Shown in pieces: positions 1-43,545 of a stretch of 64,000 nucleotides of DNA. The notes beneath the pieces were generated by a model. It saw only the letters and a program-made list of their open reading frames with translations. It searched no databases and was not told the origin of the DNA. Position numbers and translations under genes: made by a program. Position 1 is the first letter of the stretch. Each line of letters starts with the position of its first letter. The stretch is from Virgibacillus dokdonensis (GTDB lineage: Bacteria; Bacillota; Bacilli; Bacillales; Amphibacillaceae): contig NZ_LT745763.1 in the NCBI RefSeq assembly GCF_900166595.1, positions 591,315-655,314 of the forward strand. Reading direction: 5' to 3'.

Positions 1-393
1 GTTTACATCGGTTCGACGCAAAATCGTACAGAGAATGTATTCCGCCTACTTGAAGTAGTGGATACAAAGGGAAACATTCTACGATTAATTACTAACCGTT
101 TCGATCTAGACTCCGAAGAGATTAGTGAAATTTACCGTCAACGATGGACCATTGAGCTATTTTTCAAGTGGCTCAAACAGCATGTAGAGATCAAACACTT
201 TTATGGCATGAGCGAAACTGCCATTCAAAATCAAATTTTCCTTGCACTTATTGCTTACTGTTTACATGTACTTATCCAGTTAGAGATGAGGAGTAAGAAG
301 TCCTTACTCCGAATTAGCCGCTGGTTAAATAAAGCGCTGTGGAAACCTGCGTACATCTGGATTCGCAGATTTGACGATAGATCTATTCCGTAA
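1..393 (+). CDS. IS4-family transposase, C-terminal part
   Basis: The frame is open from base 1 and gives the last 130 residues of a DDE transposase. The YRQRW motif followed by IELFFKWLKQH is the conserved C-terminal region of IS4 transposases and carries the catalytic Glu. Over the last 111 residues it differs from the complete copy at 48359-49474 at only about four to five positions, so both derive from the same recent IS. The N-terminus lies outside the window, so activity cannot be judged. Confidence 0.9.
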   Translation, partial: VYIGSTQNRTENVFRLLEVVDTKGNILRLITNRFDLDSEEISEIYRQRWTIELFFKWLKQHVEIKHFYGMSETAIQNQIFLALIAYCLHVLIQLEMRSKKSLLRISRWLNKALWKPAYIWIRRFDDRSIP

Positions 394-540
394 ATACATA
401 CAGTGTCGCTGTTGCTAATAGTTTAATTGTATAATTTTTCCAAATGGACAGACCACCTTTGTTTAGCCTTTGTCTTTTTGGCAAAAAATCCTGCAAAGAT
501 GCTTACTGAATTTTCAAACCATATTTATGCAATGCTAGTG
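1..540 (+). mobile_element. IS4-family insertion sequence, right part (cut by window edge)
   Basis: This is the 3' part of an insertion sequence that also occurs complete, in the opposite orientation, at 48212-49612. It holds the transposase C-terminus followed by about 150 bp of noncoding tail. The tail ends in the terminal repeat GCAATGCTAGTG (529-540), which matches the inverted repeat CACTAGCGTTGC of the complete copy. Whether the left part is intact cannot be seen. Confidence 0.85.
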
Positions 541-553
541 ATTTGATTTATTA

Positions 554-585
554 AAAGAGCAGATAAATTATCTGTTCTTTTTTTT
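554..585 (+). terminator. Intrinsic terminator upstream of DUF3173-int
   Basis: A 12-bp stem (AAAGAGCAGATA / TATCTGTTCTTT, one G-U pair) with a very short loop is followed by a T run. It lies just past the IS end and in front of the DUF3173 gene. It would stop transcripts entering from the IS. Confidence 0.7.
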
Positions 586-610
586 ATTGAAAAAATAAGG
601 AGGAATTGTT

Positions 611-832
611 TTGCTAATGAATAAAACCATTTCAAAAAAAGAATTACAAGATATGGGTTTTTTGCCTTACCAAGCTGTTGATATTATTAGACAAGCAAAA
701 TATTACATGGTGAGACAAGGATATCCCTATTATAATAACAAAAGATTAGGACGGGTGCCTTGTCATGCTGTTGAAAATATCATAGGTGTGGACGTATCTC
801 TGGAGGAAGGGGATACGAATGGCAAAGACTAA
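611..832 (+). CDS. DUF3173 excisionase-like DNA-binding protein, element 1
   Basis: This small protein (73 aa) of the DUF3173 family has a helix-turn-helix-like pattern and the family signature RQAKYYM...GYPYYNNKRLGRVP. These proteins are encoded directly upstream of, and overlapping, tyrosine integrases of Gram-positive ICEs. They are thought to act like Xis; that is a family-level inference. Start TTG 611 has AAGGAGG 7 bp upstream; ATG 617 is an alternative. The 3' end overlaps the integrase start by 14 bp, suggesting translational coupling. A paralogue sits in the same position beside the second integrase (42043-42249). Confidence 0.8.
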   Translation: MLMNKTISKKELQDMGFLPYQAVDIIRQAKYYMVRQGYPYYNNKRLGRVPCHAVENIIGVDVSLEEGDTNGKD

Positions 833-2096
833 ATATAAAGGAGTTTATACGGATAATAAAGGAAATTTCTTTTATAATATTGAACTTGGTGTAGATAAGA
901 TTACGGGAGAAAGGATTCAGAAGAAATCTAGGAAAAACGCTAATGGTGAAAAATTTAAATCTGCAAGAGAAGCTAATAAGGAAGCGACTAGAATAAGAAA
1001 TGAATACCTTAGCCAAAATGGCTATGCCAATTATCGCCTTACTTTTGGTGAGTTTATGGATTTATTTTTTTTACCATACTATCAATCAAGCGTGGAAGAG
1101 GATACTTGGGCATCAAGAAAACATGCTTTTGAATTAATTAGAGACAGGTTTTCTGATAAAAGGCTTAGAGATATTGATGTCAGAGATTGTGAATCCTTTA
1201 GAACTTGGCTCTTGAATGAAACTGGATATTCTCAAAATTATTCTGCGTTGCTCTATGGAGGATTTAGACAAGCACTTGAGTATGCTGTGAATTTGGAATT
1301 TTTAGAGAAAAATATTTCAAAGAAAACAAAAGCAATTCCAAAAGCGAAAAGTGTTGTTGGGTTTTGGACAAAAGAGGAATTTGAAAAGGTTATCTCGATG
1401 ATTTATACTCATAACTTTTATGAGCACATGTGCTTTGTTGCAATTTGGTTATATTATATGACAGGAGTAAGAGTCAGTGAAGGATTGGCACTCTATTGGA
1501 ATGATGTTGATTTCGATAAAAAGAAGTTAAGGGTTCATCACACTTTGCAAATGAAATCAAAAAAAGATTTTAAACGAAAGCCATATACTAAAACGGAAGA
1601 TGGTATTCGCACAATATCGTTAGATGACGATACGTTAGCAATCTTGCAAAACTGGAAACAAGTACAATCAGAGCATGGAATAGATAATTTCATATTAAGC
1701 TATACAGGACTACCTGTTCATAGGTCTACAATCCATAGAATTGTACAACGATATGCCAAAATAGCAAAAGTTACTGTAATACAAGCAAAAGGATTGAGGC
1801 ATTCTCATGTTAGTTATTTAATTAATGAGTTTAATGCTGATGTATTAGTTGTATCACGAAGATTAGGACATAGTTCACCGGAAATAACTTTGAAACATTA
1901 TGCGCACTTATGGAGTAGAAATGATGAACCACTTGCTGAAAAAATGGCAGGGAATATTAAGTTCAATTTTTCTAAGGAAACTTATATGGATTTCAATGGA
2001 AATCAAGACATTAAGATGGAATTGGTTCCCTACCAAAACCCTGCCATAAGGGAAAGTAAACTGTCTGAAAGCAGTGATAGCAAGGGTTCTAGGTAG
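819..2096 (+). CDS. int: Tyrosine integrase of ICE/genomic island, element 1
   Basis: This phage-type site-specific recombinase (425 aa) should excise and integrate the element. The N-terminal AP2-like arm-binding region (KTKYKGVYTDNKGN) is followed by a core-binding SAM-like domain (about 75-160). The C-terminal catalytic domain has Arg in TGVRVSEG, His-Arg in KGLRHSH, His in LGHSS and the nucleophile Tyr in LKHYAHLW. ATG 819 follows GGAGGAAGG. It resembles the second integrase at 42242 in every motif but is clearly a different protein. It lies just before a guaA-like 3' end (2098-2121), as expected for an integrase at the att end of its element. Confidence 0.93.
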   Translation: MAKTKYKGVYTDNKGNFFYNIELGVDKITGERIQKKSRKNANGEKFKSAREANKEATRIRNEYLSQNGYANYRLTFGEFMDLFFLPYYQSSVEEDTWASRKHAFELIRDRFSDKRLRDIDVRDCESFRTWLLNETGYSQNYSALLYGGFRQALEYAVNLEFLEKNISKKTKAIPKAKSVVGFWTKEEFEKVISMIYTHNFYEHMCFVAIWLYYMTGVRVSEGLALYWNDVDFDKKKLRVHHTLQMKSKKDFKRKPYTKTEDGIRTISLDDDTLAILQNWKQVQSEHGIDNFILSYTGLPVHRSTIHRIVQRYAKIAKVTVIQAKGLRHSHVSYLINEFNADVLVVSRRLGHSSPEITLKHYAHLWSRNDEPLAEKMAGNIKFNFSKETYMDFNGNQDIKMELVPYQNPAIRESKLSESSDSKGSR

Positions 2097-2097: not shown

Positions 2098-2121
2098 CCA
2101 TCTACAGTTGAGTGGGAATAA
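2098..2121 (+). other. Putative attachment site: guaA-like 3' end, junction of elements 1 and 2
   Basis: Read in frame, these bases give PSTVEWE-stop, the characteristic C-terminus of GMP synthase GuaA (family ends near PPGTIEWE). The core GAGTGGGAATA (2110-2120) recurs at 43534-43544 in the same orientation, each time shortly downstream of a DUF3173-integrase pair. The guaA 3' end is an established integration hotspot for genomic islands. That this is attR of element 1 and attL of element 2 is an inference. Confidence 0.7.
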
Positions 2122-2210
2122 TTCACTAAGAGCATTTGAAGTGAAAACGTTGATTTGACTGCATTTCGATGGTACGTAAAATGGATGAAATGATTAAAAA
2201 TGAATAGGTT

Positions 2211-2232
2211 CTCCGCCAAGATTCCGCCAGAG
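2211..2232. repeat. Paired CCGCCA motifs near the left att
   Basis: CCGCCA occurs twice about 10 bp apart here, and again about 15 bp apart at 43453-43472 just after the second integrase. A single copy lies near 2401. The position at both ends of the element, near the att sites, fits arm-type binding sites for the integrase or DUF3173 protein; this role is inferred. Confidence 0.45.
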
Positions 2233-2248
2233 GAAACGGAGAAAAACG

Positions 2249-2282
2249 AGGGATATTGTGTAAAAGCAGTATCTCTTTTTTA
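2249..2282 (+). terminator. Intrinsic terminator at left end of the ICE
   Basis: Stem GGATATTG / CAGTATCT (one G-U pair) with an 8-base loop and a long T run. It lies after the att junction and would insulate the ICE from the upstream integrase transcript. Confidence 0.65.
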
Positions 2283-2559: not shown

Positions 2560-2751
2560 TTGAAAAATAAAATTAAAGAAATACGAAAAAAACTGGGGAT
2601 AACACAAGAGCAACTTGCCAAGGAGTGTGGAGTTGTTAGACAAACAATAAATTGTATAGAAAATGATAAATATGATCCTACACTGGAGTTGGATTTTAAA
2701 TTATCAAAAACATTAAAAGTAAAGGTAGATGAATTGTTTATTTATGAGTAA
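2560..2751 (+). CDS. Small XRE/Cro-type regulator (YozG-like)
   Basis: This 63-aa protein is essentially one helix-turn-helix domain. It has the pattern IKEIRKKLGITQEQLAKECGV followed by a recognition helix RQTINCIENDKYDP, then LSKTLKVKVDELF, typical of compact Cro-like regulators. TTG 2560 is preceded by AGGTGA (spacing 5). A promoter TTGACA-16-TAAAAT lies near 2501-2528. The stop nearly touches the deformylase gene, so the two probably form one transcript. Target unknown; autoregulation or control of the ICE left block is likely. Confidence 0.8.
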   Translation: MKNKIKEIRKKLGITQEQLAKECGVVRQTINCIENDKYDPTLELDFKLSKTLKVKVDELFIYE

Positions 2752-2767
2752 ATTTCATTTGAATTAT

Positions 2768-3319
2768 ATGCTGACCATGAAAGATATTGTGAGGGAGGGT
2801 AATGAAATTCTACATCAACCAACACAAGATGTGATGATACCTCCTTTAGAAGAAGATAAGGAAATATTAATTTGTATGATGAATTTCTTGAAAAATAGTC
2901 AAGACCACGATTTGTCTGAAAAATATAAATTGCGAGCAGGAGTTGGCTTATCAGCAAATCAGATTGGTTTGAATAAGCGGATGTTCGTTGCTTTTTTAAC
3001 AGATGAGAAAGGTATCCAACATGAATATATGCTTATTAATCCTAAAATAATCAGTCATTCAATTTCTATGATTTACCTACCACCGAGTGAAGGTTGCCTT
3101 TCAGTTGATAGGGATATAAAAGGATTTGTCCCTAGATATGAGAGAATTAAAGTGAAAGGATTTAATATAAAGGGAGAAGAGATAGTGTTGAAACTTAAAG
3201 GTTATTCCTCTATTGTTATTCAGCATGAAATAGATCACTTAAACGGAATCATGTTTTATGAGCGTTTTAATAAAGAAAATTCTTTTAAACTACCGGAAAA
3301 TTGCAAAAGTTTGTACTGA
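2768..3319 (+). CDS. def: Peptide deformylase (accessory, Def2-type)
   Basis: This protein (183 aa) should remove the formyl group from N-terminal formyl-Met of nascent proteins. All three metal-site motifs are present: GVGLSANQIG (motif I), EGCLSV with the Cys ligand (motif II) and QHEIDHLNG with the HExxH pair (motif III). The length and the insertion between motifs I and II fit type-2 deformylases of bacilli. ATG 2768 is preferred because family members begin near M-x-T-M-K-D-I; no strong ribosome site is visible and ATG 2744 overlapping the previous stop is possible. A deformylase on an ICE is unusual; it could be a spare enzyme giving tolerance to deformylase inhibitors (inference). Confidence 0.9.
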   Translation: MLTMKDIVREGNEILHQPTQDVMIPPLEEDKEILICMMNFLKNSQDHDLSEKYKLRAGVGLSANQIGLNKRMFVAFLTDEKGIQHEYMLINPKIISHSISMIYLPPSEGCLSVDRDIKGFVPRYERIKVKGFNIKGEEIVLKLKGYSSIVIQHEIDHLNGIMFYERFNKENSFKLPENCKSLY

Positions 3320-3750: not shown

Positions 3751-4812
3751 ATGACAAAACTTACTTTAGGAAGTTTATTTGATGGGATAGGTGTATTTCC
3801 ATTAGCTGCTTCTCATTATGGGATTCAACCAATATGGGCAAGTGAAATAGAAAAATCCCCCATATCTATTACGAAACGACATTTTCCTAACATCTATCAT
3901 TTAGGGGATATTACAAAAGTAAAAGGGGGAGAAATCTCACCTGTTCATATCATTACATTTGGTTCCCCTTGTCAGAACCTATCCAATATTGGTAAACGAG
4001 AAGGTCTTACAGGAAGTCAATCGAGTTTATTTTATCACGCAATCCGAATTATAGAAGAAATGAGGTGTGCAACGAATGGAACATATCCAGTTATCGCTGT
4101 TTGGGAAAACGTCATGGGAGCTTTTTCATCAAATAACAGGCTGGATTTTAAGGCCGTGCTTGAATCGTTCACAAATACCGAAATTCCAATGCCTACTTCT
4201 GGAGTCTGGGCAAATGCTGGAATGGTCCGAGGGAATGATGTTGATATCGCTTGGCGATTGTTGGATGCCCAATATTGGGGAAAGCCCACACTCGCTCAAA
4301 GAAGAAGACGTATCTTTCTCGTGGCAGATTTTGGGGGATCACGTGCCACAGAAATATTATTTAAAGCCCGTGATTTGCAATCGGTTTTTACGTCTTGCAG
4401 AGAGAGCTGGCTGTCCTCCCCCATTACCAGTAGAATATCTACTCAAAAAGCAAGGGGGAAAATACCCATCATCCGACCCTTTCAAGAAAGAAGAATGCGA
4501 AGTACAGCCAAAGAAAAAAATAAAAAAGGGTTCCAAGGAAGCTTTGGAAAAACAAACGATCCCTTCCCCACTTTGTTAGCGGGATCAGTCAATAACTTTT
4601 CTTTTTGGTACGAAGACGAAGAAAAAGAGGGCTATATCCGACAACTTACTCCATTAGAATGTGAACGTTTGATGGGATTACCAGAGGGATGGACAGCCCT
4701 TGGACATAAAGACGAAGCGATAAGTGATTATGCTAGATATAAAGCAATTGGCAATGCGATAGCTGTACCATGTTCGGAATATATTATGGCTGGTATTGCA
4801 GAAGTTTTATAG
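3751..4812 (+). CDS. DNA (cytosine-5-)-methyltransferase
   Basis: This C5 DNA methylase (353 aa) transfers methyl from S-adenosylmethionine to cytosine in a specific site. Motifs in order: I (SLFDGIGVFPLA), IV with the catalytic Cys (FGSPCQNLS), VI (WENV), VIII (QRRRRIF), a variable target-recognition region (about 205-285), IX (LTPLECERLMGLP) and X (YKAIGNAIAVP). No restriction endonuclease gene is adjacent, so it is an orphan methylase. On an ICE this suggests self-protection from host restriction, together with ArdA at 12819-13319. A plausible ribosome site (AAGGTGG) precedes ATG 3751. Confidence 0.93.
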   Translation: MTKLTLGSLFDGIGVFPLAASHYGIQPIWASEIEKSPISITKRHFPNIYHLGDITKVKGGEISPVHIITFGSPCQNLSNIGKREGLTGSQSSLFYHAIRIIEEMRCATNGTYPVIAVWENVMGAFSSNNRLDFKAVLESFTNTEIPMPTSGVWANAGMVRGNDVDIAWRLLDAQYWGKPTLAQRRRRIFLVADFGGSRATEILFKARDLQSVFTSCRESWLSSPITSRISTQKARGKIPIIRPFQERRMRSTAKEKNKKGFQGSFGKTNDPFPTLLAGSVNNFSFWYEDEEKEGYIRQLTPLECERLMGLPEGWTALGHKDEAISDYARYKAIGNAIAVPCSEYIMAGIAEVL

Positions 4813-5204: not shown

Positions 5205-5925
5205 ATGGCTATCGCTACCGATATGGAACAAATCGTTATAGAAGGTATTTTACACGCAATGTCGATTACTAATAAAGATGTTGTAGATGATTTTGAAGAA
5301 GCAATTTCAAAAAGTAATAAAAATGGATTATATGCTAGTGTATGGGCAAGAAGAAGTGACGACTTGGAAGCTCAGTTTAGCAAATTCGATGAAATAGAAG
5401 TTTTTCATATTAAAAGGACAAGTCTTTGGCAAATTGACCCTGTTTTTGATCGTAGTAATGGAGTATTATATCTATTATTTTCCGCAAATAATTTGTCTCA
5501 AGTCAGAAAAAAAATATATGAAAAAAGGAGAAAGCTCCCATTATTCTGTTAGTTTTTTGCTAAAAAACATAGGTTTACTGCCAATGCATAATGAACAATT
5601 GGAGTTTATTCCGATTGCTAATGAGGAGATAGAAGAACTAAATCTCAAAAGACAAAAAGATATTGAGAAAATGATTGGAAAAGATGCTTCGAATATAAAA
5701 AATGTGAAAATGGTAAGTGTTACTTACCATGAAGATGAAGCAATCGCAGCATTATTGCAAGAATATACTTCTGATTTCTTATTGTCGAGTGAGAGGGATA
5801 TTTCTGATTTATTGGATACTCAATATTTTGGAGACAACATCATGAGTGATGATACAAGTGATTCTGTTGAGTCAAGACAGTCCTTGGTAACGTTAAAAGA
5901 TATAAATAAAACAATAGATGATTAA
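5205..5925 (+). pseudogene. DUF5986-like gene, frameshifted
   Basis: Two overlapping frames together make one protein. The first (from ATG 5205, AGGAGTG upstream) runs to the stop at 5552. The second continues the protein from about 5515 to 5925 (KKGESSHYSVSFLLKN onward). The switch lies at an A8 run (5507-5514) followed by an A6 run (5521-5526), so a one-base slip in a homopolymer explains it. The protein resembles the DUF5986 family (low-certainty recognition), whose genes often precede an XRE-ImmA gene as here. It is either a true disruption, a sequencing slip, or programmed slippage on the A run. Confidence 0.65.
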
Positions 5926-5948
5926 GTAAATAGAAAGAGTGGTATATA

Positions 5949-7085
5949 ATGACAATATCTTTCAATGGAGATAGATTGAAGGAAGCGCGTCGTTTTAGAC
6001 AAATGTCCATCCCCCAACTAGCAGATAGGGTTGGAGTATCAAAACAAATGATTTCGAAATATGAGCATAACGATGCTCAGCCAAGTGCTAAAACATATCA
6101 AAAAATAATATTTGCACTTGGTTTTCCATTAAAATATTTTCAACAAGATGATGAATTTACTTACAATGAATTAGGTACATTTTATAGAAGTAGATTAACA
6201 TCCACGCAATCTGAAAAAAAACCGAGTGAAATGTTAAAAAAATATCTAGCTGTATTAGCTAATTTCTTTGAAAACTATGTTAATTTTCCAGTTTTGAGAG
6301 AGTTGGAATTATCGGAAAACCCAGCTGAAGCAGCAAAGCAACTTCGCGAAAAATGGGAATTAGGGGATAAGCCAATCAAGAATATGCTTCACTTGCTTGA
6401 GTTACATGGATTTCAAGTTGCAGCAATAAATTCCCAATCTGAAAAAGTAGATGCATTTGGTAGTCAAACAAAGGTGAATGGGAAAAATTATTATTGCATT
6501 TTAATTGACCAAGATAATAACTCTTTCTTTCGTCAACAATTTAGTTTGGCACATGAATTAGCTCATTGGGTATTACATTCAGAAAAAGTAAATCCCCAAG
6601 AGTTAAATCCACAGGAATATCGTGAAATGGAGAAAGAGGCGAACATTTTTGCGTCTAACTTTTTATTACCTTCAGAAGCTTTTTGTGAAGATATAAAAGG
6701 ATATGAAGATAACTTAGATGCGTACCTTAATCTAAAATCAAAGTGGAAAGTTTCTGCCGCAAGCATGGTATATCGATCAAAAAGTCTGGGATTAGTATCT
6801 TCAGAGCAGTATCTACGATTACAAAAAAGGATGAGTTCAAGGGGATGGAGGAGAAGCGAACCATTTGATACGGTTCATCCTATTTCTAAACCTACTGTTA
6901 TGAAGCAAGCGTTTGAATTACTAGAACAAGCAGGGATCATTGGGGAAAACTCTCTATCAGATTTGTTGGAAAGGAAATACAAAATTAGTTTGCCGAATGA
7001 TATTTTGGCAGAAATTTTAGGAATTCCATTGGAAAAGTTAGCAGACAATAACAGAGGGAATATTGTTCAAATGAGAAGAGATTAG
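5949..7085 (+). CDS. XRE-family regulator fused to ImmA/IrrE metallopeptidase
   Basis: A 378-aa two-domain protein. The N-terminal HTH (about residues 5-60, GDRLKEARRFRQMSIPQLADRVGVSKQMIS) is followed by an ImmA/IrrE peptidase domain with the zinc motif HELAH (in LAHELAHWVLH, about residue 202) and a downstream Glu in EKEANIFASNFLLP. In ICEBs1 and prophages, ImmA cleaves the repressor ImmR after DNA damage; here both functions sit in one chain, a common arrangement. It is the likely immunity/induction switch of this ICE, or the antitoxin-like partner of the DUF5986 gene just upstream (23-bp gap). Confidence 0.88.
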   Translation: MTISFNGDRLKEARRFRQMSIPQLADRVGVSKQMISKYEHNDAQPSAKTYQKIIFALGFPLKYFQQDDEFTYNELGTFYRSRLTSTQSEKKPSEMLKKYLAVLANFFENYVNFPVLRELELSENPAEAAKQLREKWELGDKPIKNMLHLLELHGFQVAAINSQSEKVDAFGSQTKVNGKNYYCILIDQDNNSFFRQQFSLAHELAHWVLHSEKVNPQELNPQEYREMEKEANIFASNFLLPSEAFCEDIKGYEDNLDAYLNLKSKWKVSAASMVYRSKSLGLVSSEQYLRLQKRMSSRGWRRSEPFDTVHPISKPTVMKQAFELLEQAGIIGENSLSDLLERKYKISLPNDILAEILGIPLEKLADNNRGNIVQMRRD

Positions 7086-10978: not shown

Positions 10979-10982
10979 GGCT

Positions 10983-33144: not shown

Positions 33145-33190
33145 TTGACAATCTTGTTTTTTTACATTATCGTTTTATAAAATGATAATG
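33145..33190 (+). promoter_or_regulatory. Promoter and palindromic operator of the HTH-ABC operon
   Basis: TTGACA (33145-33150) lies 17 bp before a poor -10 (TATCGT). The palindrome CATTATCGTTTTATAAAATGATAATG (26 bp, 33165-33190; one mismatched pair) covers the -10 and stops just before the ribosome site. It is a likely operator for the winged-helix regulator encoded next. Confidence 0.75.
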
Positions 33191-33206
33191 ATATGGAGGT
33201 AATCCA

Positions 33207-33749: not shown

Positions 33750-33761
33750 GGGGGGCAACAG

Positions 33762-35672: not shown

Positions 35673-35741
35673 TTTCCTTCATCGGGTCACTGGTTAAATA
35701 AACCATAGATGATTGGCTGTATAAATTGGAGGGGATACAAG

Positions 35742-36134
35742 ATGGGTTTTCAAGTTGTGGCAGGTGATCGTGAGTTACGACTGAATATTTCGGGATGGAC
35801 AGCGGCTTTAACTTTGAGGAAGGAGATCAAAATACCTTACACCTCCATTGAAGAAATTCGGGTGGGGAAATTTCATTTTCCATGGACTGCGGCTATTAAG
35901 AGAACTGGTATCACAACATCTGGCTATAAAGCTGGAATATTCATGATTGAAGATGAGAAATACTTTTTAGCCTATCATAACCAAAATGAAGTCGTCATGC
36001 TTCAATTGAAGGGTTGTGAGTTTGATCATGTTGTATTTGAAAGTGAAAACCCTAGACAATTGGTTCACGAAATGATGAGGAATTACCCTTCAATCAATCT
36101 AAGAGAAAACGCACAAAGGGAAGATGAAATATGA
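35742..36134 (+). CDS. PH-like domain protein of unknown function
   Basis: A 130-aa soluble protein rich in beta-strands (FQVVAGDRELRLNISGWTAALTL, IPYTSIEEIRVGKFHFPW, TSGYKAGIFMIEDEKYFLAY, VVMLQLKGCEFDHVVFESENP). This pattern suggests a bacterial PH-like fold. ATG 35742 follows GGAGGGG. Its end overlaps the next gene (ATGATC), placing it in the same operon. No function is known to me. Confidence 0.7.
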   Translation: MGFQVVAGDRELRLNISGWTAALTLRKEIKIPYTSIEEIRVGKFHFPWTAAIKRTGITTSGYKAGIFMIEDEKYFLAYHNQNEVVMLQLKGCEFDHVVFESENPRQLVHEMMRNYPSINLRENAQREDEI

Positions 36135-36616
36135 TCGAAAACCTCTTTCCTATTCTAATTTTTACTGCATTATTGGGATCTGGGCTGATTGCAGGATTAT
36201 TCTTTGCATTTTCGGCATTTGTCATGAAGGCTCTCTACCGGCTCCCTCCAGAGCAGGGAATTTCGGCTATGCAGTCCATAAATAATGTTGTGCTAAATCG
36301 ACTATTCTTTACAGTGTTTATGGGGACATCTCTTGTTTGTATCCTGCTTGTGATTATTTCATTATTCAATTGGCAAGAACCGAATGCCATTTATATATTA
36401 GCTGGTAGTTTGTTTTATCTTCTGGGAAGCTTGCTGGTTACGGCGGTATGTAATGTCCCACTAAATGATGCATTAGCCAATATAAGAGCTACAGATGCAG
36501 AAAGTTTGGAGCTATGGAAAGATTACTATTTAAAATGGACAGCATGGAACCATGTTCGGACCATTTCAAGTTTAGCCTCATCAGCACTATTCGTCTTCGT
36601 TCTTTGGCGAATTTAG
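36131..36616 (+). CDS. DUF1772-like membrane protein
   Basis: A 161-aa protein with four predicted helices (about 8-32, 55-78, 88-108, 138-158), pattern FFAFSAFVMKALYRLPPEQGISAMQSINNVV and WNHVRTISSLASSALF, typical of DUF1772 (anthrone-oxygenase-like) membrane proteins. It overlaps the upstream PH-like gene by 4 bp. Reaction unknown. Confidence 0.78.
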   Translation: MIENLFPILIFTALLGSGLIAGLFFAFSAFVMKALYRLPPEQGISAMQSINNVVLNRLFFTVFMGTSLVCILLVIISLFNWQEPNAIYILAGSLFYLLGSLLVTAVCNVPLNDALANIRATDAESLELWKDYYLKWTAWNHVRTISSLASSALFVFVLWRI

Positions 36617-36754
36617 ACCAAAATGGAATGGGGGATGAGGTTTCATATGAGTTATCGTCAATTCTGATGATTGTTTCCTGCTAACTCTATACAGGGAAAA
36701 TAATAGCGATATAACTAAAGTGACGAGTATTCTAGTAAAAGGAGCGATATTTAT

Positions 36755-37381
36755 ATGATAGAGTTTTCAACATTAGGAACATTTTTTGTGGTGGTTTTAG
36801 GTTTATTTTTGGTACCCGGTCCTGCGGTACTTTTAACTTTGTCCAGCACCATACGAGGAGGTAGAAAAACAGGGATTCTAACAGGGCTAGGTATTGCAAC
36901 AGGTGATTTTATACATACAATGTTTGCTGTTTTGGGGCTGTCTGCTATTTTGATGACTTCAGCTGCTGCATTTAACCTTGTCAAATATGCTGGGGCAGTT
37001 TATTTGATTTATATGGGGCTTAAAGCTATTGCAGAAAAGCCCAATAAACAAGACCTTCCTTCCGTCTCAAAGTCATCAAACCTTCAATCATACAGACAAG
37101 CCGTTTTGGCAGAGGTATTGAATCCAAAAACGGCTATTTTCTTTTTAGCTTTTCTGCCTCAATTTGTCCATCCTGAAAAGGGCACTGCGATAGTTCAATT
37201 CTTATTGCTAGGTTTGATATTTGTGATTATGAGTTGTCTTTACACTACCTTGATTGCTATCAGTGTTCGACTCATTGGCCGTTTGATGAAGAGAACTGCC
37301 AAACTTGGACAATGGAGTGGAAAATTTGCAGGTTTGATTTATATATGGCTTGGTGTAAAAGTAGCTTTTCAACAGCGATAA
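36755..37381 (+). CDS. LysE/RhtB-family amino-acid exporter
   Basis: A 208-aa protein with six helices. Motif LVPGPAVLLTLSSTIRGGRKTGILTGLGIATGDF near the N-terminus and LNPKTAIFFLAFLPQFVHPEKG in the middle are the LysE/RhtB signatures. It probably exports an amino acid or homoserine-lactone-like metabolite. It lies 138 bp after the DUF1772 gene with its own ribosome site (AAAAGGAGCG) and may have its own promoter. Confidence 0.9.
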   Translation: MIEFSTLGTFFVVVLGLFLVPGPAVLLTLSSTIRGGRKTGILTGLGIATGDFIHTMFAVLGLSAILMTSAAAFNLVKYAGAVYLIYMGLKAIAEKPNKQDLPSVSKSSNLQSYRQAVLAEVLNPKTAIFFLAFLPQFVHPEKGTAIVQFLLLGLIFVIMSCLYTTLIAISVRLIGRLMKRTAKLGQWSGKFAGLIYIWLGVKVAFQQR

Positions 37382-37424
37382 AAAATCCGTATGTGATCAT
37401 GCAAATTGCCTCTGGTCGCCATTA

Positions 37425-37685
37425 TTGGCGGAGGAAAAGCGGGAATCAATACGCCTGAGGCTTCTGAAGAAAGAGGGCAGGCCAGCACAAATAGCTTATC
37501 GATTGAATGGCCGGTTGTTCTGGCTAGTGCTTTCTTTGTCCATTCTCCATTACTTGTCCGATCGTTTAGGAGTTTCCCAACGGATCGGACCCTGTGAATT
37601 GATGATCTACTTTTGTTGTATTTACGTGCTAATACGTCGACTACTTTTTCGGGGAATTTTACCACCGTATCGACCACGAACATAA
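37425..37685 (+). CDS. Hypothetical small membrane protein (doubtful)
   Basis: An 86-codon frame with charged N-terminus (KRESIRLRLLKKEG) and two hydrophobic stretches (LFWLVLSLSILHYL and LMIYFCCIYVLIRRLLF). The composition is plausible for a membrane protein, but the only start is a TTG without a ribosome site, and a 121-codon frame runs on the other strand. It may be a fragment of a larger gene. Confidence 0.35.
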   Translation: MAEEKRESIRLRLLKKEGRPAQIAYRLNGRLFWLVLSLSILHYLSDRLGVSQRIGPCELMIYFCCIYVLIRRLLFRGILPPYRPRT

Positions 37686-37744
37686 CAAACTCCCATATTC
37701 CTCCCGATCTAACCAAAATCCTGAAAGAGATCAATGAGATATAA

Positions 37745-37998
37745 AGTGAAACTTCATTCAGTGGGGGTTTTTTTCATCCCCCACTGAATAGTAAGGATCA
37801 AAGGCTAAATTCGCAACATCCTGTCGGCAGGCTCAAAGCACGACATCCTGTCGTTTCGCCCGCACTAGTACGTCCTGTACGTCGCAACGCCTTTGTGACC
37901 TTCGTCCAGCAGGCCTGAACCAATCGGGTATTTACTGGCAGTTGTCCCCCACTTACAATTCTCGTTTTCACCTCGAATTCTTGAAGTGGGGGGCTTAC
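37745..37998. repeat. Palindrome-dense intergenic repeat element
   Basis: A noncoding block packed with hairpins. Outer ones are TTCAGTGGGGG / CCCCCACTGAA (37753-37785, T-rich loop) and CCCCCACTT / AAGTGGGGG (near 37949-37993). Between them come a row of small hairpins built on CCTGTCGG-CAGG, GACATCCTGTC and GTACGTCCTGTAC. No coding capacity. It looks like a dispersed palindromic repeat or transposon-end/noncoding-RNA element and also separates the convergent lysE and kinase genes. Confidence 0.65.
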
Positions 37999-38004
37999 TG
38001 TCAG

Positions 38005-39813
38005 TTAATTCGGGATCAATCCGTTCTCTATACACTTTTCTACAGCTTGGTCACGATTGTTTACACCAAGTTTGGCGTACATTTCGGAAGCATAATTCCT
38101 AACTGTACCTTCAGATAGAAAAAGTCTAGCGGCAATGGTCTTGTAACGCATACCTTTGGCTAAATAGTGAATAATTTCAATTTCTCGAGATGTCAGTCCA
38201 TAATCATTTTTGTCATGTTTACCAGCTGAAATATTTTGCTCCTTCAATTTTTCAAACACCTGATTAGCAATTTCATGGTAGATAATGGTATCTCCACGGT
38301 GAATGAAACGAAGGGTATCAATGAGCTCTTTTGCTTGAATAGACTTAAGTAAATAGCCATTTGCTCCTTTTTGCAGAGCCTCTACCGCTTGATCGATATT
38401 CTCAAAAGATGAAAGAATCACAATCTTGATCATGGGATTCTTCTCCTTTATCGCTTCCATGGCTTCTATTCCATTCATATTTGGCATATTTACATCCATA
38501 AGCACGATATCGGGCTGGTTTAGGCTACTTAATGATAAGGCATCTTCTCCAGATTCAGCAATACCGACAATTTGCAGTTGATTGTGACTCTCCAAAGTTG
38601 TCTTCAACCCATCCAAAATGCCAGGTTGATCATCTACTAAGATTACCTTGAGCGTCTCGGTATTAGCTTCGCTGTTTCTTGGAATAGTACAGATAATCAC
38701 CGTTTCTTCCATATTGTCTGTATGTATGGATAAATTTCCTTGCAAAGCCTGCAATCTTTCTTTCATCGCACGTAAGCCAAAGCCGAGTTCAATTTTTTTC
38801 GCTTGTTCCAATACACCATTGTCTTCAACTTGCAAGCGTAGCTCCAAGCTGTCGAAGTATAAAGATACTTTAATTTCACTTGCTTGCCCATGTCTAACAG
38901 CGTTCGTTAATGTTTCCTGAATGCAACGAATAATCGTTAATTTAACTTCCTTTGATAAGTTGTATTCATCTCCAAAATATCGAAATTTAACAGACGTATC
39001 CGTACTTTCCATAAATTTGTCAATTAACTGTTTTACATATTGAACAAGTGATAAATTCATTGCGGATGGTTCCAACTGATGTACAAGCTTTCGCATGTCT
39101 TGTAAACCGTCACGTGCCGTGTTCAGTAAAACGTTCAGTTTATGTCCAACCTTTTCATCCGCCAACGAAGAATGGATTGTCTCCATACCCATGATCATCG
39201 TGGTAAACGTATGACCGACCGTATCATGCAACTCCCGCGATAAACGATTACGCTCCTCCTGCAGAGTAAGTTGTTCCACCTCGTATACATATTGTTCAAG
39301 CACACTGTTTTGCTTATGGATGATCAAGCTTTGCTTATGGTTGGTCACAAGTAATTGAAAAGCATAACCAAGTCCAAATGCTACACCATAATTCGATATT
39401 AAACGAAGAAAAGTGTCGGTCAAAGATTGATCGGTTACCATTCCGATGATAAAAGGAATGACCACAATAGTTAAAGGTCCGGACCAAATATAGACTCTTA
39501 GGATACTGTAAAACCCTATCACAAAAGCAATCGGGATAAACTGCCATAATGCATCATGAAGAAGGAATGTCAAAAAAATGCAATAGCTTCCAGAAATGAT
39601 GATCTCCGTAAGTATGAAGTATTTTCTAAAAAATTGCTGAATTAAAAATGGAATTGAAAAGACAATGAAGGGCAATCCAAACAGAATCCAAAACGGAAAT
39701 GATAAAATATTATGAAATTCCCACAAGCCGATTAGGACAGAGAGTAACCAAATGGAGCGAACAGCAAATACCATCCAGTCATACCAGTACCACTTTTTGA
39801 TGATGTCATACAT
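38005..39813 (-). CDS. Fused DesK-type histidine kinase and NarL-type response regulator
   Basis: A single 602-aa chain. Four to six transmembrane helices (about 12-160), short coiled coil, HisKA_3 with the phospho-His in LSRELHDTVGHTF (about residue 195), HATPase (N box ETLTNAVRHG, G box LGFGLRAMKERL). After a short linker, a receiver domain follows (Asp in IVLMDVNMPNMNG, Lys in GYLLKS) and a LuxR-type HTH (LTSREIEIIHYLAKG...FLSEGTVRNYASEMYAKLG). Normally kinase and regulator are two genes. ATG 39813 is preferred; the ribosome site is weak (GGGG). The product would be a membrane-bound DNA-binding regulator. A sensor-domain protein is encoded divergently (40003). Confidence 0.9.
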   Translation of the reverse strand: MYDIIKKWYWYDWMVFAVRSIWLLSVLIGLWEFHNILSFPFWILFGLPFIVFSIPFLIQQFFRKYFILTEIIISGSYCIFLTFLLHDALWQFIPIAFVIGFYSILRVYIWSGPLTIVVIPFIIGMVTDQSLTDTFLRLISNYGVAFGLGYAFQLLVTNHKQSLIIHKQNSVLEQYVYEVEQLTLQEERNRLSRELHDTVGHTFTTMIMGMETIHSSLADEKVGHKLNVLLNTARDGLQDMRKLVHQLEPSAMNLSLVQYVKQLIDKFMESTDTSVKFRYFGDEYNLSKEVKLTIIRCIQETLTNAVRHGQASEIKVSLYFDSLELRLQVEDNGVLEQAKKIELGFGLRAMKERLQALQGNLSIHTDNMEETVIICTIPRNSEANTETLKVILVDDQPGILDGLKTTLESHNQLQIVGIAESGEDALSLSSLNQPDIVLMDVNMPNMNGIEAMEAIKEKNPMIKIVILSSFENIDQAVEALQKGANGYLLKSIQAKELIDTLRFIHRGDTIIYHEIANQVFEKLKEQNISAGKHDKNDYGLTSREIEIIHYLAKGMRYKTIAARLFLSEGTVRNYASEMYAKLGVNNRDQAVEKCIENGLIPN

Positions 39814-40002
39814 AAGAGAACCCCGCTTATTTAATGATGTGACTATCACTATTTTACTACAAGTCATTATGAATATCAGTCATGAAAACAAATGACAAAA
39901 TGTCACTATGCCTTATGACGTGAAGTATGGATAATGAAATAAGTATTGGACAGTGAGGAATCTAATGCTACTTCATTATTAAAAGAAAAGGTGGTTTTCT
40001 GT

Positions 40003-40578: not shown

Positions 40579-40957
40579 TGATCGTATGTAATATAGGAGG
40601 ACAAGGCTTTACTATATGTAGTGAATTTATCAAATGGAGATTAAAAAAATCTAAACCTCCGTTTCTCCCTTTAAAAAAGGATTTCATAAGGGGACATTAA
40701 TTTTGCTTTTTTTAAGCTACGATATATCAAAAACATCTTGGATAATTATGAAACCATTATAGCATTAATGTCACAACAAACAGCATCTAGTACAAATATC
40801 AATTTTTATGCCCAACTGGTTGATTATCAGTTGGGCCTTATATTTTTTAAAAAAATAAGATCACTGATATTTTTGGCATTTTATAAAAAATCTTGTTGAA
40901 GGTTATGAAAGGGGAAATCATCACCCACCTTTGCGGTTGCGAAGGGAGAGGATATGC
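40579..40957 (+). other. Intergenic region before the Orf7 gene
   Basis: About 380 bp. A short frame preceded by AGGAGG (near 40597) gives no recognisable protein. The right part contains a strong terminator (40810-40848). No gene is called. Confidence 0.45.
40810..40848 (+). terminator. Intrinsic terminator upstream of sigma-like orf7
   Basis: Perfect 9-bp stem GCCCAACTG / CAGTTGGGC, 9-base loop, then an AT-rich tail with a T run. Marks the end of the cargo block. Confidence 0.8.
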
Positions 40958-41395
40958 ATGATAGAACCAGATCGTACCGAATGGCAAGTTCGCTGTGCAT
41001 TTAATGCTTTTTGTAAACGTGTGTTGAAGAATGAAGCAATCAATATTTTTAATGAAAGAAAACAACGACAAGCAAAGGAGATGACATTTTCTGATCTCAC
41101 CCCACAAGAAGAAAATCAACTCTATACCTTAGATAAGCAATATGAAGGAGAAGAAGGACAAAGTTTTCAAGTGGCTGGAAAGAAAATCACTCCGAAATTA
41201 CTTGCTGAAGCCATGCGTACCTTGCCAAAGGAAAAGCGTATCACTGTCCTACTATACTATTTTTTTCAACTGTCTGATGTGGAAATTGGTCAACTACTCG
41301 ACATTCCACGTAGTACAGTTCAGTATAGGCGGACAAGCTCTTTTGAACGGTTAAAGCGATTTTTGGAGGAACATGCAGATGAATGGGATGATTAA
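40958..41395 (+). CDS. Sigma-70-like protein (Tn916 Orf7-like)
   Basis: This 145-aa protein has a C-terminal sigma region-4 HTH (about 85-140, LPKEKRITVLLYYFFQLSDVEIGQLLDIPRSTVQYRRTSSFERLKRFLEE) and a short N-terminal helical part. In Tn916, Orf7 and Orf8 control transcription of the int-xis end and the transfer genes. ATG 40958 follows AGAGGAT. It overlaps the orf8 start. The order orf7-orf8-xis-int is as in Tn916. Confidence 0.85.
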   Translation: MIEPDRTEWQVRCAFNAFCKRVLKNEAINIFNERKQRQAKEMTFSDLTPQEENQLYTLDKQYEGEEGQSFQVAGKKITPKLLAEAMRTLPKEKRITVLLYYFFQLSDVEIGQLLDIPRSTVQYRRTSSFERLKRFLEEHADEWDD

Positions 41396-41633
41396 TTCTA
41401 ATATTGAAAACAACGAGCGTGGTTTATTGCCGTACCCAATTATTTTAGCTGCAAATAAGGGTGAGCCAGAAGCAATGAAAGTAGTTGTTTTGCATTATGG
41501 AAGCTACATGACAAGCTTATCTATGCGTAAGCTCCGTGATGAACAAGGAAATACTTATTGGGGCATCGATGAAGATACACGCGAACACTTACGAGCGAAG
41601 CTTATGCAATCTGTTTTAGCTTTCAAGATTTGA
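41379..41633 (+). CDS. Helix-turn-helix protein (Tn916 Orf8-like)
   Basis: An 84-aa protein with the pattern PYPIILAANKGEPEAMKVVVLHYGSYMTSLSMRKL and DEDTREHLRAKLMQSVLAFKI, the HTH_16 family found with Orf7 in Tn916-type elements. GGAGG is 9 bp before ATG 41379. It overlaps orf7 by 17 bp. Confidence 0.87.
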   Translation: MNGMINSNIENNERGLLPYPIILAANKGEPEAMKVVVLHYGSYMTSLSMRKLRDEQGNTYWGIDEDTREHLRAKLMQSVLAFKI

Positions 41634-41721
41634 TGAAATAATGGTTAGGTTTTCCCTTTCATTAATCATAATTTGATCTTTGACAAAGAAAGCATGGAAG
41701 ATAACGCCATGCAGTATAAAT

Positions 41722-41977
41722 AAAAAATCAGATACGTTTTACTGATGATGAGCCACTTGATTCATACGCCACGACTTTCGTTAGAAACGAGCGATAATCT
41801 ATGAATCTAATGCAATCGTGGTGGATTGCTGGCGATAACTCATTAGTTAGGATAATGATACTCCCCTACCGTCATGGTTCGAGCGTTCAAAGCGTCGCAA
41901 ACTATGAGTAGGGCTGGAAGAAATACTTGCAGGGGTGAAATTCCCGTGGAGCTGCACCAACAGCCGTCTGATTTTTT
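41722..41977 (+). ncRNA. Structured RNA candidate between orf8 and the integrase unit
   Basis: A 256-nt noncoding stretch closed by a perfect 11-bp stem: AAAAAATCAGA (41722-41732) with TCTGATTTTTT (41967-41977). Inside it I find GATTCATA / TATGAATC (41760-41808) holding a TCGTT-AGA-AACGA hairpin. Next is CCCTAC / GTAGGG (41864-41913) holding CATGGTT / AACTATG. Last comes GCAGGGG / TTCCC-CTGC (41929-41955), with GGCTG/CAGCC enclosing it. There is no ORF. The 3' side ends in a T run, so it can also terminate. I do not recognise an Rfam family. Confidence 0.6.
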
Positions 41978-42042
41978 AATAGTATTAAATTATCGTTGTT
42001 TCTAGTATGTATTCTTCTGTTAGTGAAAGGGAGGTATATATA

Positions 42043-42249
42043 ATGAAGGAACTGATTACAAAAGATGATTTAATTCAACTTGGGTATCCTAAATATACTT
42101 CGATACGAATTATTAGACAAGCCAAACAAATCATGGTACAAAAAGGGTATCCATTTTATAATAATAAACGCTTAGGGCGTGTACCAAAAATGACAGTCGA
42201 ATCGATTCTAGGTTGTGAACTAGAATTGGAGGAAGACAGTCATGGCTAA
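42043..42249 (+). CDS. DUF3173 excisionase-like protein, element 2
   Basis: A 68-aa DUF3173 protein with RIIRQAKQIMVQKGYPFYNNKRLGRVP, nearly the same core as the copy at 611-832. ATG 42043 follows GGGAGGT. It overlaps the integrase start by 8 bp, again suggesting coupling. Likely a directionality factor or a small regulator of the integrase; evidence is context only. Confidence 0.82.
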   Translation: MKELITKDDLIQLGYPKYTSIRIIRQAKQIMVQKGYPFYNNKRLGRVPKMTVESILGCELELEEDSHG

Positions 42250-43450
42250 AACCAAATATGTAGGGGTTTATATTGATAACAATGGTCAATATTTTTATGA
42301 AACGGAGTTAGGAACGGATCGCATTACTGGAAAACGACTCCGAAAAAAAGGACGTACGAACCAACAAGGAAGAAAGTTTACTTCTGCTTTGCAAGCTTAT
42401 AAAGAATTGGTACGGGTGAAAAATGAATACCATCAAGCAAATGGTTATGGAAATTATCACATGACATATGGTCAATTCATGGACACTGTGTACATTCCAG
42501 CTTATGAAACCGAGGTGGAAGAAAGTACTTTTTACGTTCGCAAACGAACTTTAGAAAGTATGAGAGATCGTTTTACAAACATTGAGCTTCGTTCTTTAGC
42601 AGTAGAAGATGTCCAACGTTATCGAACCTGGTTACTTTCTGATAAAGGAGCTGGATATTCCCAAGCATATGCAAGTTTGGTATTTGGTATGTTTCGTAAA
42701 AGTCTGGATATGGCAGTTGATATGCAATATCTAGAAGTGAACGTGTCTAAAAAGGTGAAGGCTATCCCTAAAGGAAAAGCGGTTGTCCCATATTGGACAA
42801 AGAAAGAATTTGAAAAAGTTATCTCGGTTATTTGTCTGGATGACTTTTATGAACATTTATGTTTTGTGATGTTGTGGACGTATTTCATGACGGGGATACG
42901 GGTTAGTGAAGGAACGGCCTTGTGGTGGGATGATATAGATTTTAAAAACAAACGGCTTCGCGTTCATCACTCACTGTATTTAATAAATAAAAGCAATTGG
43001 AAACGAAAAGATTATACAAAAACAGAGGATGGTAAACGGATCATCTCTTTGGATGAGGATACGATACAAGTGTTGCAAGAATGGAAACAACGACAATCAA
43101 AAATAGGGATTGACGATTTTATTTTTAGTTATGATGGAGCGCCAATGATTAAATCGACGCTTGCTAGAATTATTCAACGTTATGCAAAACTTGCAGATGT
43201 TCATCGTATTCAAGCTAAAGGACTCCGACATTCGCATGCGTCTTATCTCATTAATGAATTTAATGTTTCTGTTTTGATTTTATCAAAGCGTATGGGACAT
43301 TCGAGTCCAGAAATTACGTTAAAGCATTATTCACATATGTGGTCAGGTGTAGATGAACTAATTGCGGAAGAGATGACAGGTAACATTAATATACGAACAG
43401 CGGAAAAATCAAGTATATCATTTAATGGGAATCAAGCAGTAAAAAAATAA
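42242..43450 (+). CDS. int: Tyrosine integrase of the ICE, element 2
   Basis: This 402-aa recombinase has an AP2-like arm-binding N-terminus (KTKYVGVYIDNNGQ), a core-binding domain (about 70-160) and a catalytic domain with Arg in TGIRVSEG, His-Arg in KGLRHSH, His in MGHSS and the nucleophile Tyr in LKHYSHMW. It is collinear with and similar throughout to the integrase at 819-2096, so both probably recognise the same target, the guaA 3' end. Last gene of the ICE. Confidence 0.94.
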   Translation: MAKTKYVGVYIDNNGQYFYETELGTDRITGKRLRKKGRTNQQGRKFTSALQAYKELVRVKNEYHQANGYGNYHMTYGQFMDTVYIPAYETEVEESTFYVRKRTLESMRDRFTNIELRSLAVEDVQRYRTWLLSDKGAGYSQAYASLVFGMFRKSLDMAVDMQYLEVNVSKKVKAIPKGKAVVPYWTKKEFEKVISVICLDDFYEHLCFVMLWTYFMTGIRVSEGTALWWDDIDFKNKRLRVHHSLYLINKSNWKRKDYTKTEDGKRIISLDEDTIQVLQEWKQRQSKIGIDDFIFSYDGAPMIKSTLARIIQRYAKLADVHRIQAKGLRHSHASYLINEFNVSVLILSKRMGHSSPEITLKHYSHMWSGVDELIAEEMTGNINIRTAEKSSISFNGNQAVKK

Positions 43451-43452
43451 GT

Positions 43453-43472
43453 TCCGCCAGAATCCCCGCCAA
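43453..43472. repeat. Paired CCGCCA motifs near the right att
   Basis: Two CCGCCA copies right after the integrase stop, mirrored by a pair at 2211-2232. AAACGTTGAT follows at 43492-43501 and is also found at 2145-2154. These are candidate arm-type recombination sites. Confidence 0.45.
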
Positions 43473-43521
43473 TACAATTTAAAGGTGTGATAAACGTTGA
43501 TATAGCAATGTTTCGGCGTCA

Positions 43522-43545
43522 CCTGCACACTTGGAGTGGGAATAG
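43522..43545 (+). other. Putative attR: guaA-like 3' end
   Basis: Bases read in frame as PAHLEWE-stop, like the C-terminus of GuaA, and share the 11-bp core GAGTGGGAATA (43534-43544) with 2110-2120. No coding sequence precedes it, so it is a leftover 3' end, as expected of the right junction of an island in guaA. Confidence 0.7.

What the first reader, a model, noticed from the sequence alone, without database searches (positions are those of the whole stretch)
1..43545. Two integrative elements in tandem at a guaA-like attachment site
Each DUF3173-integrase pair is followed by an in-frame remnant ending in EWE-stop (PSTVEWE at 2098-2121, PAHLEWE at 43522-43545), the C-terminus of GMP synthase, sharing the direct repeat GAGTGGGAATA. 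pbuG and pur genes, normally next to guaA in Bacillus, follow further right. The guaA 3' end is a known island hotspot. Together this suggests element 1 (right end only, visible) and element 2 (about 41 kb) inserted one after the other at the same site with related integrases.
Basis: partly seen in the sequence, partly recalled or inferred. Interest (0 to 1): 0.8.

Follow-up and report, generated by a model that had tools for sequence, protein, structure and literature searches.

The report
Stacked mobile elements behind guaA
Two self-transferring DNA elements, and the stump of a third, appear to have inserted one behind the other at the end of the same bacterial gene, and comparison with relatives suggests that this spot takes two kinds of element facing opposite ways.

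Summary
The finding holds and can be extended. Intact guaA ends 25 kb left of att2, outside the window. The order is guaA | ICE1 (25.2 kb) | ICE2 (41.4 kb) | pbuG, with GAGTGGGAATA at all three junctions. Both elements carry Tn916-type conjugation genes. Empty guaA-pbuG sites are found in 53 of 80 named loci. A near-identical ICE1 (99.5%) sits without ICE2 in another genome of the genus whose pbuG DNA is only 85% identical. Each ICE has its own variant of a paired repeat at both ends, 62-63 and 90-92 bp from the core.

Corrections: 'PSTV' and 'PAHL' belong to the elements, not to guaA. The DNA right of 43544 begins with the int-side end of a third guaA element, of an opposite-facing kind, whose integrase is lost.

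Wider pattern: two integrase clades (32-37% identical) use the same core. Their arm-like repeats lie alike relative to int, but the core is inverted, so the elements face opposite ways; 5 of 5 new integrases fitted (82). Excision, transfer and Int binding are inferred. Rfam 'rli38' matches one kind of element end.

The parts
1..393 (+). 3' end of an IS4-like transposase gene inside ICE1 (IS copy B; ICE1 continues left of the window to G000:C15:568192)
   Evidence: 9-bp target duplication ATTTGATTT, absent from the G097 copy of ICE1; the IS4 name is by eye, no family search was run on it
611..832 (+). ICE1 DUF3173 protein, putative excisionase/directionality factor
   Evidence: PF11372 E 1.6e-23; function inferred
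819..2096 (+). ICE1 tyrosine integrase Int1 (ORF listed from 786)
   Evidence: PF00589 E 2.7e-19; 58% to Int2; identical protein in G097
2029..2046 (+). ICE1 int-side paired repeat CCTACCA..CCTGCCA (arm-like), 63 bp before the core
2110..2120 (+). att2: core GAGTGGGAATA, junction of ICE1 right end and ICE2 left end
2107..2261 (+). ICE2 left terminus ('D' type), weak rli38-like match
   Evidence: D terminus E 4.4e-23 (it was in the training set); rli38 42.3 bits, below the gathering score 49
2213..2229 (+). ICE2 far-side paired repeat CCGCCA..CCGCCA (arm-like), 92 bp after the core
2729..3319 (+). peptide deformylase gene in ICE2
   Evidence: TIGR00079 above cut-off
3751..4812 (+). DNA cytosine-5 methyltransferase in ICE2
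   Evidence: TIGR00675 above cut-off; best PADLOC match is an orphan methyltransferase model
5434..7085 (+). RmrT-like (weak) and RmrA-like (HTH + M78 peptidase) genes
   Evidence: PADLOC E 1.2e-10 and 3.4e-127; Pfam for the second
9653..20335 (+). ICE2 conjugation module: FtsK-type coupling protein (9653-10978), Rep_trans relaxase (11185-12405), ArdA (12819-13319), TcpE (13381-13773), AAA_10 ATPase (13724-16213), large protein without Pfam hit (16113-18389), lysozyme-like + NlpC/P60 (18389-19408), TcpC (19424-20335)
20390..39867 (.). ICE2 cargo: ISL3-type transposase gene, two MFS transporters, GNAT-type genes, TetR regulators, ABC transporter, histidine kinase-response regulator fusion
   Evidence: not every ORF was searched
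40931..41949 (+). sigma-70 region 4 protein, HTH_16 protein and pemK RNA (41852-41949) next to the integration module
42007..42249 (+). ICE2 DUF3173 protein
   Evidence: PF11372 E 1.1e-26
42242..43450 (+). ICE2 tyrosine integrase Int2
   Evidence: PF00589 E 4.8e-21
43454..43471 (+). ICE2 int-side paired repeat CCGCCA..CCGCCA, 62 bp before the core
43534..43544 (+). att3: core GAGTGGGAATA, right end of ICE2
   Evidence: V. chiguensis has the same right flank joined at this point to a different element through the variant core GAGTAGGAGTA
43545..43611 (+). int-side terminus of a third, opposite-facing ('P' type) guaA element whose integrase is lost
   Evidence: P terminus E 3.9e-10, not in the training set; keeps one half-repeat GTGCAA at 60 bp
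43723..48045 (.). stretch behind the P terminus: P-type metal ATPase (43723-45663, -), ArsR-type regulator (46153-46473, -; name by eye), ZnuA-like binding protein (46885-48045, +); cargo of the third element or acquired separately
   Evidence: V. chiguensis has 43534-46886 at 97% DNA identity behind the same terminus and the ZnuA-like protein at 89%
48212..49612 (-). IS4-like element, copy C
   Evidence: ORF 48359-49474; flanking 9-bp duplication TAATTAAAT
49738..51633 (+). purine riboswitch and pbuG, the usual right neighbour of guaA
   Evidence: empty-site comparison

Best explanation
guaA's last 11 bp (GAGTGGGAATA) are an attachment site for tyrosine-integrase elements. Here ICE1 (25.2 kb) and ICE2 (41.4 kb), both with a Tn916-type conjugation module and a DUF3173-Int cassette, stand head to tail behind guaA. 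Right of them is the end of an older, opposite-facing guaA element that has lost its integrase. Shown: the junctions, end pairs, gene content, empty sites in relatives, and ICE1 without ICE2 in another genome. Inferred: that the paired repeats are Int arm sites, that DUF3173 is the directionality factor, that the elements excise and transfer, and the order (third element's stump oldest, ICE1 latest).
For: Intact guaA ends at the third core. Core starts are 25,232 and 41,424 bp apart. Conjugation genes in both elements. Paired arm-like repeats: 4 in 92 kb, all beside the three cores, one variant per ICE (73); Markov expectation 0.12, at most 2 in 60 simulations; ICE2 variant, 0 in 100 shuffles; the patterns were chosen after seeing the ends. 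53 of 80 named guaA loci are empty (pbuG <1 kb) and none of these 53 has an element terminus; 16 of 80 have one right at the core; 11 unclear. V. chiguensis carries the same right flank joined at the core to a different element. ICE1 in G097: 99.48% over 20,863 aligned columns, without the two IS and the intron. Third element: P-terminus match E 3.9e-10.
Against: No circular form or empty site was seen in this strain. ICE1's coupling-protein gene is interrupted by a group II intron, so its transfer depends on splicing. No second core was seen right of att3, so the extent of the third element is unknown. Close relatives of the metal ATPase, ArsR and ZnuA genes were found only in V. chiguensis; G097's P element has a remote ATPase-ArsR pair (34% and 38%), and remote relatives also occur in the D-type stretches of G054 and G100. 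So the cargo link is weak, and most P loci held were only 3-5 kb long. The D-type pair pattern was not found in three D-side loci, G014, G063 and G119.
Confidence: 0.93

Rival explanations
1. The tandem arrived as one 66.7-kb composite element (excised between the outer cores and transferred as a unit), not by two insertions.
For: All three cores are identical, so recombination between the outer two is possible in principle; the review PMC5704250 (passages) says transfer of CIME-ICE tandems was observed.
Against: Each ICE has its own matching pair of end repeats. ICE1 stands without ICE2 in G097, between other neighbours, at 99.48% identity, and an ICE2-like element stands without ICE1 in G100.
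Confidence: 0.06
2. The DNA right of att3 (43545-48211) is native chromosome, and its likeness to P-type ends is a shared intrinsic terminator.
For: The matching stretch contains a terminator-like hairpin (by eye); no integrase and no second core are present.
Against: 0 of 53 empty sites match the P terminus. In G045 and G097 such letters start right after the core and lead into an antisense integrase, in G080 into an antisense integrase fragment. One arm-like half-repeat is kept at the P spacing of 60 bp. guaA-pbuG is under 1 kb in 53 of 80 named loci.
Confidence: 0.08
3. Opposite-facing elements arise by inversion of whole elements in place, not by integrases that use an inverted core.
For: P-type elements of G097 and G080 share conjugation modules with ICE2 at 82-87% DNA identity in opposite orientation.
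Against: Orientation follows the integrase clade: P rows form one clade (100/100), and 5 of 5 integrases not used for the tree had the orientation their clade predicts. BLAST homology stops at window 41975-41976, just before DUF3173, in 3 of 3 P elements compared, which fits a swapped integration cassette.
Confidence: 0.05

Closest known systems
Tn5801 / ICELm1 / Tn6254-type elements at guaA
   Same: 11-bp direct repeat at the guaA 3' end (GAGTGGGAATA is printed for Tn6254 in PMC4377027; Tn5801's 11-bp repeats are described in PMC4844618; passages read), Tn916-type genes, integrase.
   Different: In the passages the integrase of Tn6254 and ICELm1 lies next to guaA. In ICE1 and ICE2 it lies at the far end. 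Whether the known integrases fall in the P clade was not tested by sequence.
Tn916-family conjugation modules (ConjTn916)
   Same: Rep_trans relaxase, FtsK-type coupling protein, TcpE, AAA_10 ATPase, lysozyme-like protein with NlpC or M23 domain, and TcpC in both elements.
   Different: Integration module is DUF3173 + guaA-specific integrase. ICE1 has an adjacent HTH repressor-like and M78 peptidase pair, an arrangement I recall from ICEBs1's ImmR/ImmA.
Tandem accretion of ICEs, IMEs and CIMEs (ICESt1-related elements and others)
   Same: Elements stacked through shared att sites, with a decayed relic beside them (PMC5704250, passages).
   Different: Here the array mixes two integrase clades with opposite orientation.
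Rfam RF01470 rli38, 'Listeria sRNA'
   Same: The model begins with the guaA 3' end and core and holds a CCUACCA..CCugcCA pair about 101 positions after the core start. ICE1's left end scores 96.1 bits.
   Different: Annotated as a regulatory RNA, not as an element end. In L. monocytogenes EGD-e it is cut short when ICELm1 circularises at attR (PMC10794523, passage). I did not fetch the EGD-e sequence.

Membership tests
Tn916-family ICE (by conjugation module) | Rep_trans-type relaxase | tested here: met
   PF02486 E 1.1e-69 (ICE2) and 3.1e-58 (ICE1)
Tn916-family ICE (by conjugation module) | TcpC, TcpE, AAA_10 ATPase and cell-wall hydrolase in one block | tested here: met
   both elements
Tn916-family ICE (by conjugation module) | FtsK-type coupling protein | tested here: met
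   ICE2 E 1.1e-10; ICE1's is split by a group II intron, N-terminal piece E 1.6e-5 at 24.9 bits (cut-off 24) and no hit for the C-terminal piece
Tn916-family ICE (by conjugation module) | excision, circularisation and conjugative transfer | not testable with these tools
   needs a strain
guaA-3'-end integrated element | 11-bp direct repeat identical to the guaA 3' end at both boundaries | tested here: met
guaA-3'-end integrated element | empty guaA site in relatives | tested here: met
   53 of 80 named loci
Tn5801/ICELm1/Tn6254-type element | integrase next to guaA (as the passages describe for Tn6254 and ICELm1) | tested here: not met
   both integrases lie at the far end, in sense with guaA; so ICE1 and ICE2 are not filed as Tn5801-like
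[quoted passage not shown]
   att2 has ICE1-type repeats on its left and ICE2-type on its right
[quoted passage not shown]
   needs junction PCR
rli38 regulatory RNA | match over the Rfam gathering score | tested here: met
   ICE1 left end 96.1 bits against 49; the ICE2 left end does not reach it (42.3)
rli38 regulatory RNA | transcribed RNA with trans-acting function | not testable with these tools
   no expression data for this strain
Recombination directionality factor (DUF3173) | winged-helix/Xis-like fold | tested here: inconclusive

The most novel reading that the evidence does not exclude
Two deeply split integrase clades recognise the same 11-bp guaA core with nearly the same arm geometry (repeat pair about 60 bp from the core on the int side, about 90-95 bp on the far side, conserved relative to int), but their attP core is inverted relative to the arms. 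Related conjugative backbones therefore insert behind guaA in either direction, by exchanging the DUF3173-int-att cassette, and mixed-orientation arrays result. The RNA family rli38, linked to Listeria virulence, would then be the far end (attL) of one of these clades rather than an independent sRNA gene.
Probability: 0.5. Interest if true: 0.65.

Novelty: new variant of a known kind. Interest (0 to 1): 0.5.

Why it matters
guaA is a known island site. This array shows how elements can stack there without using the site up, and ICE1 at 99.5% identity between hosts whose pbuG DNA is about 85% identical points to recent transfer. The inverted core with conserved arm geometry, if real, is a clean natural experiment on what sets the direction of insertion by a tyrosine integrase, and can be tested with mini-elements. 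The rli38 match warns that an RNA family used to annotate genomes, and cited as a virulence sRNA, may mark the end of a mobile element.
Full report
WHERE IT IS. The window is G000:C15:591315-655314 of a 4.61-Mb genome. The host is close to Virgibacillus chiguensis: its guaA protein is reported 100% identical to the one in NZ_FQXD01000016, and the 5.3 kb that end with guaA are 95% identical in DNA.

THE OBSERVATION. The repeat GAGTGGGAATA stands at window 2110 and 43534. A third copy, outside the window, forms the last codons of an intact 511-codon guaA at C15:566668-568203. Between core starts lie 25,232 bp (ICE1) and 41,424 bp (ICE2). The six exact copies in the genome include these three; the other three have neither an integrase of this kind nor an element terminus in the 3-kb loci around them.

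WHAT THE ELEMENTS ARE. ICE2 carries, in order, an FtsK-type protein, Rep_trans relaxase, ArdA, TcpE, AAA_10 ATPase, a large protein without Pfam hit, lysozyme/NlpC and TcpC, then cargo, a sigma-region-4 gene, an HTH_16 gene and a pemK RNA, then DUF3173 and Int2. ICE1 carries ArdA, an FtsK-type gene, Rep_trans, TcpC, TcpE, AAA_10 and a lysozyme/M23 protein, and at its left a helix-turn-helix gene next to an M78 peptidase gene. Its FtsK-type gene is split by a 1,897-bp group II intron. G097 has the same gene uninterrupted (457 aa).

THE ENDS. A paired repeat stands at each element end: CCT[AG]CCA pairs for ICE1, CCGCCA pairs for ICE2. In 92 kb there are four such pairs, all beside the three cores. 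Gaps to the core are 63 and 62 bp on the int side, 90 and 92 bp on the far side. Markov-simulated sequence gave a mean of 0.12 pairs, at most 2 in 60 runs; for the ICE2 variant, 0 in 100 shuffles of the window. The patterns were chosen after looking at the ends, so these odds flatter them. G097, G054, G100, G059 and G024 show pairs at the same offsets; G014, G063 and G119, which have integrases on the D side, show none with this pattern. So att2 is the right end of ICE1 joined to the left end of ICE2. I call the repeats arm-like; binding is not shown.

EMPTY AND OCCUPIED SITES. Of these 80, 53 have pbuG within 1 kb and no element terminus, 16 have a terminus right after the core (14 D, 2 P), 11 are unclear. 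Some occupied loci are the same organisms as sequences used to train the profiles. The unclear ones include L065, which has an antisense integrase next to guaA that the profile missed. That none of the 53 empty sites has a terminus says that the termini are element-borne in this group.

THE THIRD ELEMENT. Right of att3 the sequence matches the int-side end of elements that face the other way ('P'), E 3.9e-10, with a profile that did not include it. G045 and G080 have almost the same letters after guaA, leading into an antisense integrase in G045 and an antisense integrase fragment in G080. V. chiguensis has the same right flank, but joined to another element through a variant core, GAGTAGGAGTA; that is independent evidence for the att3 boundary. 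The integrase of this third element is missing here. A metal ATPase, an ArsR-like regulator and a ZnuA-like protein follow; close relatives of these were seen only in V. chiguensis, while G097's P element has a remote ATPase-ArsR pair (34% and 38%), as have the D-type stretches of G054 and G100. An IS4-like element with a 9-bp duplication separates them from the pbuG riboswitch. guaA and pbuG, 324 bp apart in V. halodenitrificans, are 73.4 kb apart here.

HISTORY. G097, a same-genus genome, has guaA | P-type element (35.7 kb) | ICE1 | further D-type ends | pbuG at 118.8 kb. Its ICE1 is 99.48% identical to ours over 20,863 aligned columns in five pieces (about 200 columns at a repeat are counted twice and about 90 lie beyond the right core) and lacks the two IS4-like copies and the intron. 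pbuG DNA is only 85% identical. This points to recent movement of ICE1. That the third element's stump is oldest and ICE1 latest is inference.

TWO ORIENTATIONS. DUF3173 occurs in 23 of 120 family genomes. In 19 of the 23 it lies downstream of guaA on the same contig (read by eye); in three it is on another contig, and in one guaA was not found. Among 21 integrase ORFs found in the fetched loci, 18 have a core within 400 bp: 7 in sense with guaA (D), 11 antisense (P); 3 had no core in range. The labels come from the strand, so the test is the tree. Of 20 rows (17 different; the G080 fragment was dropped), all 11 P rows form one clade (support 100/100); the 7 D rows and 2 rows without a core in range lie on the other side; D-P identity is 32-37%. 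A further test: in 299 class genomes, 5 close integrases that were not in the tree (3 nearest the D clade, 2 nearest the P clade) all have the predicted core orientation. G378, also found there, was already in the tree. 8 remote ones (42% identity or less) have no guaA core.

In the int frame, P elements have their own paired repeats (GTGCAA, ATGCAA or GTGCCA) 59-60 bp before the core and 95 bp after it. This was measured on both sides in 3 elements (G097, G080, G100). On the int side alone, 7 of 9 further loci had the pair; L065 and G079, which have identical integrases, had none. The P pattern occurs 0 times in our 92 kb, 3 times in G097's 120 kb, 3 times in G080's 40 kb and twice in G100's 93 kb, the terminal pairs included. 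The geometry is thus nearly that of D elements, but the core reads TATTCCCACTC or TACTCCCACTC. Related backbones carry either cassette: BLAST homology between ICE2 and three P elements stops at window 41975-41976, just before DUF3173. By terminus matches the arrays mix the two: own D-D-P, G097 P-D-D-D-D, G054 D-D, G100 P-D, G080 P-P, V. chiguensis D-P, G003 D-P.

rli38. Rfam's rli38 scores 96.1 bits on ICE1's left end. The model starts with guaA's last codons and has CCUACCA..CCugcCA about 101 positions after the core start. In 120 family genomes there are 33 hits in 23 genomes: 18 exactly at the guaA stop, 10 further downstream on the same strand (4-76 kb; one of them behind a second guaA-like gene of G049), 5 elsewhere. 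In 299 class genomes 14 have hits. Of 12 loci fetched there (two of them from genomes of the family set, ours included), 8 show guaA ending at the hit, one has a D-clade integrase beside it, and 3 showed neither. Papers: rli38 is cut short when ICELm1 circularises at attR in EGD-e (PMC10794523, passage), is EGD-e-specific among the strains compared (PMC3556495, passage), is reported as virulence-linked (PMC8079631, passage), and is annotated in 70% of 27 Streptococcus agalactiae genomes, in NEM316 in the core region (PMC6064168, passages). The last point speaks for a native guaA 3' region in some hosts. Whether the Listeria copy is an element end or the native guaA 3' region I did not test.

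KNOWN AND NEW. The guaA 3' end as island site and the 11-bp repeat are known: PMC4844618, PMC4377027 and PMC4701971, passages read; Song 2012 is seen only as a reference there. Tandem accretion is known (PMC5704250, passages). Searches for guaA with integrative elements, tandem, orientation, Tn5801 and ICELm1, and for DUF3173, listed no paper that I recognised as describing two opposite-facing integrase clades at guaA. Only open-access papers were searched, and most listed papers were seen as titles and abstract beginnings only.

Noticed in passing
L007:5190-5339; window 2107-2261: Rfam rli38 ('Listeria sRNA') matches the left ends of ICE1 (96.1 bits) and, below threshold, ICE2 (42.3 bits), including the guaA core.
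   Followed up: partly
window 41852-41949: pemK RNA (RF02913) directly before the DUF3173-int cassette; DNA homology with opposite-facing elements ends just after it (41975-41976).
   Followed up: partly
L007:13374-15270: A group II intron (1,897 bp) interrupts the FtsK-type coupling gene of ICE1; absent from the 99.5% identical ICE1 of G097.
   Followed up: partly
L007:8756-9871, L008:12593-13708, window 48359-49474: Three copies of one IS4-like element (name by eye) in the island, with 9-bp target duplications AAATCTAAT, ATTTGATTT and TAATTAAAT.
   Followed up: partly
window 5434-7085: RmrA-like gene (PADLOC E 3e-127) behind a weak RmrT match: possible defence or regulatory pair in ICE2.
   Followed up: no
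L009:12271-15608: LmuA/LmuB-like (Lamassu-type) genes in the guaA element of V. chiguensis (PADLOC).
   Followed up: no
window 38005-39867: One ORF fuses a histidine kinase (HisKA_3, HATPase) to a LuxR-type response regulator.
   Followed up: no
window 21546-22967 and 31077-32312: MFS transporters in ICE2 resembling LmrB (643.6 bits, cut-off 800) and Tet efflux proteins (177.9, cut-off 475), both below those curated cut-offs.
   Followed up: no
L010 (NZ_QWLJ01000058): A record titled Roseburia sp. 1XD42-34 carries a Virgibacillus-like guaA (95% protein identity) with an ICE2-type end: probably a mislabelled or mixed record.
   Followed up: no
guaA 3' ends of L009-L088: The core variant beginning GAA occurs at 16 of 53 empty sites and 0 of 16 occupied ones (p 0.015, not corrected for kinship).
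   Followed up: partly
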